Source: Austropuccinia psidii (lineage: Eukaryota; Basidiomycota; Pucciniomycetes; Pucciniales; Sphaerophragmiaceae). Taken from it: DNA of 64,000 nucleotides. The stretch covers positions 12,736,451 through 12,800,450 of the forward strand of contig JALGQZ010000004.1 of assembly GCA_023105745.1 (NCBI GenBank). The letters are read 5' to 3'. Each line of letters opens with the position of its first letter. Position 1 is the stretch's first letter. A program made the translations under genes and the position numbers. Below are positions 47,781 through 64,000 of this stretch, one piece after another. Under the pieces are notes generated by a model. That model did not search any database and had not been told where the DNA came from. It saw only the letters and a list, made by a program, of their open reading frames with translations.

Positions 47781-47905
47781 CACCGGGGCGAATCTCGTGT
47801 CAATCGTCGGCGATTGACTTCACGTCAAGCAAACGTCAAGCAGGATAAAAGTCGAGCTCACGTCAAGCGAAAATCAAGCGAACGTCAAGCACACGTCACA
47901 CTCTG
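47781..47905 (+). repeat. Left terminus with subterminal ACGTCAAGC motifs
   Basis: ACGTCAAGC occurs at 47822-47830, 47833-47841, 47860-47868 and 47882-47890, with the variants AATCAAGC at 47872 and ACGTCACA at 47893. Four exact 9-mers in 70 bp is far above chance. A lone inverted copy is at 58865-58873. Confidence 0.7.
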
Positions 47906-48108
47906 GTCTTACACCAAATCCTGTGACATCCAATAATATTGGTTCCCCTGTGCCTTCAACTCAGATTCCTCACCACCTGATCATCCCACAACCGTCCGAT
48001 GATTGGTAAAAATTACACCAGACCCGCCTGTTTGCACACACACACATCAAAGATGTCCTTCAGCCAGTTTTGATGTAGGCGGGGGGTTTGACTTCACCAG
48101 GTCATCCA
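47906..48108. other. Spacer before the GT-rich array
   Basis: No gene or strong repeat; includes a short CACACACACATCA run near 48037. Confidence 0.4.
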
Positions 48109-48385
48109 TGAAGTGTGCGTGTGCGGGTGGGTGGGCGTGTGCATTGGCGTGTGCGGGTGCGGGTGGGTGGGCGTGTGCATTGGCGTGTGCGGGTGGGTTT
48201 GCGTGTGCATTGGCGTGTGCGGGTGGGTGGGCGTGTGCATTGGCGTGTGCGGGTGGGTTTGCGTGTGCATTGGCGTGTGCGGGTGGGTGGGCGTGTGCAT
48301 TGGCGTGTGCGGGTGGGTTTGCGTGTGCATTGGCGTGTGCGGGTGCGTGGGCGTGTGCATTGGCGCGTGCGGGTGCACATGCGGG
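48109..48385 (+). repeat. G-rich minisatellite, 30-bp unit with 60-bp higher order
   Basis: About nine copies of a 30-bp unit containing GTGTGCATTGGCGTGTGCGG followed alternately by GTGGGTGGGC or GTGGGTTTGC. The 60-bp dimer repeats almost without change at 48181, 48241 and 48301. Thirty is divisible by three, so several frames stay open on both strands, and none of these is a gene. Clusters of GGGTGGGTGGG could form G-quadruplexes. Confidence 0.93.
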
Positions 48386-48654
48386 TGTGGGTACACAAAA
48401 GCCGATTCCGCTTCCAACATGATGATGGCGCAGTTAGAAATTTTGGATGCTATGAAAGGTGAGTGTGTGGGTCATTTGATCATTGGACTTGGCTTATTCA
48501 CACTGTACCCAATGTCAAAATAGTAAGTTCTTTGTGGCAATGTGAAATAATGGGCTTTGCTTGTCACAATGGCATGTCTCTGTCACTAAATTTTGAGGCA
48601 ATTATTTCACTAGCAAAATTGCTAATGAATCTGAGAGATTTGCATTTTTGTAGA

Positions 48655-62570: not shown

Positions 62571-62598
62571 TATGTACGATGGCATGCCTCCGTACATA
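62571..62598. repeat. Palindrome 4 of the shared motif family
   Basis: TATGTACG at the left and CGTACATA at the right are perfect; inner TGGC and GCC are also symmetric around AT, with two mismatched pairs. Confidence 0.8.
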
Positions 62599-62725
62599 AT
62601 CCACTTCACCCCTTTTTCCTGTGAGACACCCTATCTCCCGCACTCGAATCCATCCAATCCTGTTGTATATTGTCCTCTGCCTTACCCCACCATCATCTAC
62701 CAATCACGCTGCTATTCCGACTGCC

Positions 62726-63838
62726 TCACTCTTTGAATCGGCATGAGATTGTATTACCATCCCTGATTTGATAGCCCGCTCTCTCGGCAATCTCATAATA
62801 GCCATGGCTTGTTTGCCGCATTGTTTTTGCCAACCTCCTTGAGCATTGTGCGGACATACCCACTAGTGTCGTGCTTTCGTTGTCCTGTGCTGGATCAGTA
62901 TAATGAACAAATGTACTACTGGCCCACACTACCTGAATGAGCCCATGACATGCGGATAGATCAATCCAAAAATGCTCATTTGGGAAAATCAATTTTCCCC
63001 CTGTACACCGCTTTGACGCATCTCTTTGAATTTGGCCGGTCCGCTTATCAGCTTGAAACCACCATCCCGAAGCATACAGCGATGCATCCTTATCAACATG
63101 AGGTGCGTTTTTGAATCCATTCATGGTGAAAGTGAGTGCCGAAGCAAACTCACATGCACCCTGATTTGCGGGATTATTGCCTTCATAGTTGACTTGATCA
63201 AAAGACGGAACCCCCAATGAGTTGTAGCAATTTTGAATCTTCTGAAATAAATTATCCCCAACATATCGTAAGGATTGACCTAGAATGCGACCCACCGAGC
63301 TAAGATTGGCACCTCGGTCCCGCCATTCATCTTTTGCATTTTCAATTTTGCCAGCACTACCATACAGACCAAATTGTTCATTCTTCGTGGTGCATTTGCG
63401 CCACCCAATCGCGAACATAAATCCCTCCAGTAATGCTCCATTTGTTGCAATAGGGTCAGTGAACCTCTTTTCGCGAAATAAGAATTGTGATAATTCATCC
63501 CATTGATTGACCTTGACTTCACTCATTGTTGTGAATGGTCGGAATTCAACAAGGGCAATGAGTAATCCGGTTGAAGAGAAAATTGCCACACGGCCAAAGT
63601 GAATGCGTTTGATCTGATTGACATCCACCACCCTCCGAATTTCACTTGGGGTGATATTTGCTGATACTGGCATTGATATTTGTGCTGTTGGGCGAGAGGA
63701 GGAAAAAAACCTATTCATTCGGGTTGTTTTGCGCTCATTTGTCTTTTGGGATCTGCTACTATTCCCGAGTGGTTGCGGGATCACTATGTGTTGAAGCACA
63801 AAAGATATCAGATACTGACAAGCAGCTTTCTTCGGCAC
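62726..63838 (-). CDS. Tet/JBP-like 2OG-Fe(II) dioxygenase
   Basis: An open frame of 370 codons in one block, ending TISCRFKE. No ATG exists at its 5' edge (the first codon is GTG). The first in-frame ATG is 63718-63716 (MNRFFSSS), so the start is there or in an unseen upstream exon. The double-stranded beta-helix domain occupies most of the protein. TNGALLEGFMFAIGWRK, then the iron-binding pair in NAPHVDKDAS (HxD, about 63,095), the distal histidine in STFVHYTD, and the Arg-containing SAQCSRRLAKT for 2-oxoglutarate are in the expected order. In the TET/JBP superfamily such enzymes oxidise methylated pyrimidines in DNA. Fungal members are known to be spread by transposons. Activity on 5mC here is inferred. 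All key residues appear present. Confidence 0.85.
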   Translation of the reverse strand: MPKKAACQYLISFVLQHIVIPQPLGNSSRSQKTNERKTTRMNRFFSSSRPTAQISMPVSANITPSEIRRVVDVNQIKRIHFGRVAIFSSTGLLIALVEFRPFTTMSEVKVNQWDELSQFLFREKRFTDPIATNGALLEGFMFAIGWRKCTTKNEQFGLYGSAGKIENAKDEWRDRGANLSSVGRILGQSLRYVGDNLFQKIQNCYNSLGVPSFDQVNYEGNNPANQGACEFASALTFTMNGFKNAPHVDKDASLYASGWWFQADKRTGQIQRDASKRCTGGKLIFPNEHFWIDLSACHGLIQVVWASSTFVHYTDPAQDNESTTLVGMSAQCSRRLAKTMRQTSHGYYEIAERAGYQIRDGNTISCRFKE

Positions 63839-64000
63839 ACATCCTTTGACTTCCCTTTAGAGCCCACAGGACATTGGCACAATCTGAACCGACTAAAGCC
63901 AATGTTCTTCCGTGGGGCCCAATGAGGGTGCCACATAAATGTGGAAGCATATATATATATCTATATATATACACTGAGATTAAGTGAGAAACTCACACTT
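63839..64000. other. Window end, upstream of the Tet/JBP-like gene
   Basis: Contains an AT dinucleotide tract (about 63950-63971). Possible upstream exon of the minus-strand gene, but no splice site is convincing. Confidence 0.4.

What the first reader, a model, noticed from the sequence alone, without database searches (positions are those of the whole stretch)
47781..64000. Composite CACTA-type element carrying SNF2, Tet/JBP and Zn2Cys6-like genes
Seen: a transposase of the CACTA/Plavaka type, a companion protein, an intact SNF2 ATPase, a Zn2Cys6-pattern protein and a Tet/JBP-type dioxygenase in alternating orientation within 16 kb, with no host gene between them. Known: fungal TET/JBP genes are linked to KDZ and related DNA transposons (Iyer and colleagues 2014). 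Inferred: the element carries its own chromatin and DNA-methylation editing set, allowing it to escape silencing and mutation. A SNF2 plus a putative sequence-specific binder plus a dioxygenase would be a plausible targeted demethylation module. I do not know this exact gene set as a described system.
Basis: partly seen in the sequence, partly recalled or inferred. Interest (0 to 1): 0.88.

Follow-up and report, generated by a model that had tools for sequence, protein, structure and literature searches.

The report
Rust transposon with demethylase and remodeler
In the myrtle rust fungus, genes for a jumping-gene enzyme, a chromatin-opening motor and a DNA-demethylase-like enzyme lie side by side and share possible control sites, which suggests one mobile element that may fight its own silencing, although its ends have not been found.

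Summary
The five genes are present, in alternating orientation, in DNA of Austropuccinia psidii. TET-carrying EnSpm transposons of rusts are already in print (Kojima 2025); an SNF2 partner was not found in my searches.

For one element: a 26-bp palindrome occurs four times, only within 52.2-62.6 kb, 363 bp upstream of the transposase ATG, 367 and 507 bp upstream of the SNF2 ATG, and 129 bp past the TET stop. SNF2 and TET gene models have neighbouring locus tags in 3 cases against 0.43 expected. One TET model begins with the transposase's N-terminal segment.

Against: no terminal repeats with target duplication were found; the right end is outside the window; 0 of 20 transposase models neighbour SNF2 or TET by tag; this copy's transposase, and probably its Zn-type gene, carry in-frame stops. 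The Zn2Cys6-like gene misses Pfam's cut-off and nothing but position ties it to the rest. The genome could not be searched.

Verdict: probably a new variant of a known kind; the targeted three-part module is unproven.

The parts
48077..48412 (+). left tandem array (12/18-bp units) with 7 copies of ATTGGCGTGTG
   Evidence: whether it belongs to the element is inferred
48655..51815 (-). transposase (Transposase_21, rust EnSpm type), two exons, in-frame stop at 51726-51728
52178..52203 (.). 26-bp palindrome, 363 bp upstream of the transposase ATG
52776..54837 (+). companion gene, no credible Pfam match; exon structure not checked against relatives
55218..57576 (-). SNF2 ATPase, 4 exons, 723 aa, Rad5-like, intact
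57943..57968 (.). 26-bp palindrome, 367 bp upstream of the SNF2 ATG
58083..58108 (.). 26-bp palindrome, 507 bp upstream of the SNF2 ATG
60259..61438 (+). Zn2Cys6-like gene (membership of the element not shown); model ends at an in-frame stop
62011..62559 (+). right tandem array (about 40/78-bp spacing) with 6 copies of ATTGGCGTGTG; found next to TET in 7 of 120 listed TET models
62572..62597 (.). 26-bp palindrome, 129 bp past the TET stop
62726..63718 (-). Tet-like 2OG-Fe(II) dioxygenase (PF20515), 330 aa, intact, HxD-H-R residues present

Best explanation
This is a partly decayed copy of a large, multi-copy EnSpm/CACTA-type DNA transposon of A. psidii that carries transposase and companion for movement, plus a Rad5-like SNF2 ATPase and a TET/JBP-type dioxygenase as anti-silencing cargo. 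Shown: the genes and their order, four shared palindromes, recurrent SNF2-TET neighbourhood, one transposase-TET join. Inferred: the palindromes bind one, perhaps dimeric, regulator so that transposase and SNF2 are expressed together; SNF2 opens or moves along element chromatin; the dioxygenase oxidises 5mC there and keeps the element expressed. The Zn2Cys6-like gene is left out of the claim.
For: Palindrome at four places, all inside the gene block, 0 in 100 shuffles; each site's three best matches in 64 kb are the other three. SNF2-TET tags within two of each other 3 times against 0.43 expected, random shifts reach 3 in 0.83% of 20000 trials. TET model P0018 starts with the transposase N terminus, E 6e-17 to P0133, 14 of 24 transposase proteins matching. 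Both arrays share an 11-mer found nowhere else in the window. SNF2 open through four exons; TET open with catalytic residues.
Against: No TIR with target duplication. Right end outside the window. 0 of 20 transposase models lie within five tags of SNF2 or TET models (low power). P0018 has the order transposase start then TET, which one copy arranged like this one would not give. One of the three SNF2-TET pairs is on a contig (3460 bases) too short for the spacing seen here. The palindrome pattern was written from the sites; 10 of 54 other palindromes in the window also have a match of 22 or more of 26. The 11-mer is reached in 20 of 2000 or 26 of 500 shuffles and points the same way in both arrays. 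CpG o/e differs between the genes, 0.37 to 0.94. The transposase of this copy is broken.
Confidence: 0.5

Rival explanations
1. Two neighbouring or nested elements: an ordinary EnSpm (transposase and companion, about 48.5-54.9 kb) beside a separate SNF2-TET transposon of another superfamily whose transposase lies beyond 64 kb.
For: TET genes pass between transposon superfamilies in rusts, and TET-carrying PHISTA elements are reported from A. psidii. A weak inverted match starting CAC at 48499 and 54867 brackets exactly transposase and companion: 44 of 2000 shuffles reach it in a post hoc narrow test. SNF2 and TET pair up, but no transposase pairs with either by tag.
Against: The wider version of that inverted match is reached by 163 of 1000 shuffles, and its 3-bp flanks differ. 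Palindromes are shared across the supposed border. P0018 joins transposase and TET.
Confidence: 0.36
2. Chance neighbourhood of abundant repeats in a genome made mostly of transposons; no functional unit.
For: Each family is multi-copy, and over 90% of the genome is covered by transposable elements (PMC8063080, passages).
Against: SNF2-TET pairing above expectation; transposase-TET join; palindromes confined to the block.
Confidence: 0.1
3. A host gene cluster of chromatin genes beside a transposon.
For: SNF2 and TET are open here, and CpG o/e is above that of the neighbouring Gypsy.
Against: 119 SNF2 and 120 TET gene models from A. psidii among the rows listed, far more than host genes would give.
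Confidence: 0.04

Closest known systems
TET+ EnSpm transposons of rust fungi (Kojima 2025, PMC12730594; abstract, section 3.1, 3.2, 3.4, part 1 of the discussion and the legends read)
   Same: EnSpm-type transposase with Plavaka similarity, PU-type rust TET/JBP gene, multi-copy, same proposed escape from methylation; related EnSpm families are reported from A. psidii.
   Different: Reported TET+ EnSpm of rusts are from P. striiformis; SNF2 does not occur in that main text (supplements not seen). [quoted passage not shown]
TET+ IS3EU elements with an alpha-kinase gene (same paper)
   Same: A transposon with TET plus an extra regulatory-type gene in the opposite orientation.
   Different: Other transposase, kinase instead of SNF2.
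KDZ and Plavaka elements with TET/JBP (Iyer and colleagues 2014, recalled; paper not held)
   Same: Fungal DNA transposons linked to TET/JBP genes.
   Different: The transposase here hits Transposase_21; Plavaka is under its cut-off, no KDZ model appears.
JBP2 of kinetoplastids (PMC11065753, passages)
   Same: TET/JBP dioxygenase working with an SNF2 ATPase.
   Different: One fused protein for thymine hydroxylation, not a transposon; here two genes, substrate unknown.
Rad5-like SNF2 proteins
   Same: Best solved relative is Rad5 (189 bits; next 155).
   Different: Only the motor region is matched; multi-copy and next to TET; no RING finger was reported by Pfam.

Membership tests
TET+ EnSpm (CACTA) of rusts | EnSpm-type transposase | tested here: met
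   Transposase_21 above cut-off; rust relatives P0136, P0142, P0146, P0147. C-x2-C between the catalytic D and E seen by eye only.
[quoted passage not shown]
   No convincing pair; right end probably outside the window.
TET+ EnSpm (CACTA) of rusts | TET/JBP gene inside the same element | tested here: inconclusive
   Palindromes and P0018 in favour, no termini.
TET/JBP dioxygenases (rust type) | Tet-like domain with HxD, distal H and R | tested here: met
   PF20515 161.1 bits; H in 24, D in 23, second H in 23 of 26 aligned, R in 21 of 24 without gap. The fold model failed.
TET/JBP dioxygenases (rust type) | Oxidation of 5mC | not testable with these tools
   No assay; the paper states that transposon-encoded fungal TETs are not validated.
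Plavaka | Plavaka transposase domain | tested here: not met
   25.6 bits, cut-off 26.3.
KDZ | KDZ transposase domain | tested here: not met
   No KDZ family among the Pfam matches.
SNF2 ATPases, Rad5-like | Both motor lobes with helicase motifs | tested here: met
   SNF2-rel_dom 1-288 of 290, Helicase_C 13-110 of 110; Rad5 best solved match.
Zn2Cys6 regulators | Zn_clus domain | tested here: not met
   12.9 bits, cut-off 21, partial match; cysteine spacing fits.
JBP2 | Dioxygenase and SNF2 in one polypeptide | tested here: not met
   Separate genes about 5.15 kb apart.

The most novel reading that the evidence does not exclude
A. psidii transposons encode a split JBP2-like machine: a Rad5-like SNF2 ATPase opens element chromatin for a TET dioxygenase, and both are expressed with the transposase through a shared palindromic operator, so that the element actively resists methylation and CpG loss.
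Probability: 0.3. Interest if true: 0.8.

Novelty: new variant of a known kind. Interest (0 to 1): 0.57.

Why it matters
Transposon-borne TET genes are known in rusts, but how such an enzyme would reach compact, methylated element chromatin is open. A recurrent SNF2 partner would give a concrete answer, and A. psidii has a published chromosome-level, methylation-called assembly (PMC12774611, passages) in which copies with and without SNF2 and TET could be compared for 5mC and CpG loss.

Tried and rejected
KDZ and Plavaka membership. Terminal inverted repeats: exact 11-base seeds and CA..TG pairs with equal 3-bp flanks (1304 pairs, best 15 of 24 bases alike) gave nothing I trust; the 48.5/54.87 kb pair survives only in a rival. 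AlphaFold models of TET (mean pLDDT 30.2) and of the first SNF2 ORF (44.1) were too poor, so no fold search was run. A PDB profile search with TET gave one chance match, E 0.8. Viral contigs: 10 pattern matches, none confirmed as a TET relative. Rfam and tRNA scans of the window were empty. A DNMT5 origin of the SNF2 was considered (PMC13297926, passages); Rad5 is the best of the 60 solved matches shown out of 82, and DNMT5 was not compared directly. The Zn-type protein and the antisense protein in the Gypsy element both have Zn2Cys6 spacing (x2,6,9,2,6 and x2,6,10,2,6), but BLAST between them matches proline-rich parts, and the cysteine part only at E 3.2, so homology is not claimed.

On print: SNF2 with TET-carrying or EnSpm transposons was sought and in the main text of PMC12730594. 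Of the papers these listed I opened passages of PMC11065753 and PMC13297926 besides PMC12730594; the others, PMC10515909 and PMC7159879 among them, were seen as listing only. Supplements and most subscription papers, Iyer 2014 included, were not seen. sought TET in basidiomycetes and Puccinia.

Full report
Source. The window comes from Austropuccinia psidii or a very near relative. The best hits of the TET, transposase and SNF2 proteins are A. psidii MF-1 gene models at up to 97%, 87% and 92-95% identity, some over part of the query. The window's own genome could not be searched, because the genome search did not complete.

Anatomy. From left to right: a tandem array (48077-48412); a transposase on the minus strand (51815 to 48655) with an in-frame stop at 51726-51728; a companion gene on plus (52776-54837); an SNF2 gene on minus (57576 to 55218) with four exons and three GT-AG introns, 723 residues without a stop; a Zn2Cys6-like gene on plus (60259-61438 in my model, ending at an in-frame stop); a second array (62011-62559); and a Tet-like dioxygenase on minus (63718 to 62726). 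Pfam names the transposase Transposase_21, the SNF2 protein SNF2-rel_dom plus Helicase_C, and the dioxygenase PF20515; companion and Zn-type gene have nothing above cut-off. The best solved relative of the SNF2 protein is Rad5.

The dioxygenase. In an alignment of the window protein with 25 of the 120 listed relatives, the first iron-binding H is kept in 24 of 26, the D in 23, the second H in 23, and the R in 21 of 24 without a gap. Of all 120 listed TET models, many of them partial, 94 hold HxDxD. Seven of the 120 (P0015, P0023, P0041, P0050, P0053, P0093, P0096) also match the array at 62.0-62.6 kb, so that array travels with TET. No fold evidence was gained.

Linkage elsewhere. MF-1 locus tags run almost strictly with falling contig length (2 exceptions among those used), so neighbouring tags on contigs of equal length probably mean one contig. 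I used 120 TET, 119 SNF2 and 20 transposase models, all the A. psidii rows listed; 117 TET and 224 SNF2 hits were not listed. SNF2 and TET lie within two tags of each other in 3 cases against 0.43 expected; random shifts of the tags reached 3 in 0.83% of 20000 trials; within one tag it is 2 cases, 1.9%. The contigs are 10802, 12698 and 3460 bases long. The last is too short for the spacing seen here, and many contigs have about that length, so I count two good pairs. In those two the tags are consecutive, so no gene is annotated between SNF2 and TET; that speaks against, or at least not for, a Zn-type gene between them. No transposase model lies within five tags of either (0 of 20, low power).

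The TET model P0018, on a contig of 11471 bases, begins with about 31 residues of this transposase's N terminus and goes on as TET. Fourteen of 24 transposase proteins match that start, best E 6e-17; no other TET or SNF2 model showed such a join, apart from one weak match, P0346, E 0.026. It puts both families on one contig and strand, but in an order that a single copy like this one would not give, so it may be a rearranged or tandem copy. The SNF2 model P0354 carries sequence like 58317-58740, so that upstream region belongs to the SNF2 unit.

Shared sites. A 26-bp palindrome (ATGTWCGNTGG...CGWACAT) stands at 52178, 57943, 58083 and 62572 and nowhere else in 64 kb at up to two mismatches; 100 shuffles gave none. 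Since the pattern was written from the sites, one search is the fairer test: each site has the other three as its best matches in the whole window, at 18 to 23 of 26 bases, the next best being 16 or 17. Ten of 54 other palindromes in the window also have a match of 22 or more, so one pair alone would mean little; the set of four confined to this block means more. The near sites stand 363 bp from the transposase ATG and 367 bp from the SNF2 ATG. No such site lies between the Zn-type ATG and 58108, and the TET promoter is mostly outside the window. The arrays share ATTGGCGTGTG (7 and 6 copies, none elsewhere), but shuffles reach this in 20 of 2000 or 26 of 500 trials, and both point the same way, unlike classic subterminal repeats.

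Ends. A weak inverted match at 48499 and 54867 would bracket transposase and companion alone. A narrow post hoc test gives 44 of 2000 shuffles, the wider one 163 of 1000, and the flanks differ. I treat it as a rival, not as a boundary.

Silencing. CpG o/e is 0.10 in the neighbouring Gypsy element and 0.37 (transposase), 0.57 (companion), 0.53 (SNF2), 0.94 (Zn-type) and 0.71 (TET) here. In this species younger transposon families have more CpG and also higher 5mCpG ratios (PMC12774611, passages), so the values fit a young stretch and do not show protection.

What is known. Kojima 2025 (PMC12730594; abstract, sections 3.1, 3.2, 3.4, discussion part 1 and legends read) describes TET-carrying rust transposons of seven lineages, EnSpm among them, and proposes escape from methylation and C-to-T mutation. 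SNF2 does not occur in that main text. JBP2 joins a TET/JBP domain and an SNF2 domain in one protein (PMC11065753, passages). The locus would be a two-gene counterpart in or beside a transposon. It works like JBP2 by inference only, and it is not a JBP2.

Judgement. One EnSpm-type element with SNF2 and TET cargo 0.5, two adjacent elements 0.36, chance 0.1, host cluster 0.04. The Zn2Cys6-like gene has only its position in its favour. The finding stays interesting because the SNF2-TET pairing has support outside the window, but termini and copies in a full assembly are needed before the word composite is safe.

Noticed in passing
36271-47780: Gypsy element with chromodomain pol (gag, RT, RNase H, integrase) and a 161-bp direct repeat, 98% alike, at its sides; CpG o/e 0.10.
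   Followed up: partly
43590-44797: Antisense gene inside the Gypsy element with Zn2Cys6-like cysteine spacing (x2,6,10,2,6), the only other such match in six frames of the window.
   Followed up: partly
28000-32000: Island of high CpG o/e (0.9 and 0.72) in a CpG-poor stretch; an ORF at 29385-29702 reads GSGPGGQ, the motif of peptide release factors as I recall it, so perhaps a host gene.
   Followed up: no
beyond 64000 (seen in P0047 and P0048): Two TET models share an N-terminal tail, 70.5% alike over 61 residues, that does not match the window, so something conserved lies upstream of TET.
   Followed up: partly
54843-54875: Imperfect hairpin (TAATTTGTCAC...GTGACAAATTA) just after the companion stop; terminator or element end unknown.
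   Followed up: partly
47850-47996: Dispersed repeat, also at 4259-4379 on the other strand and in the tail of SNF2 model P0254.
   Followed up: partly
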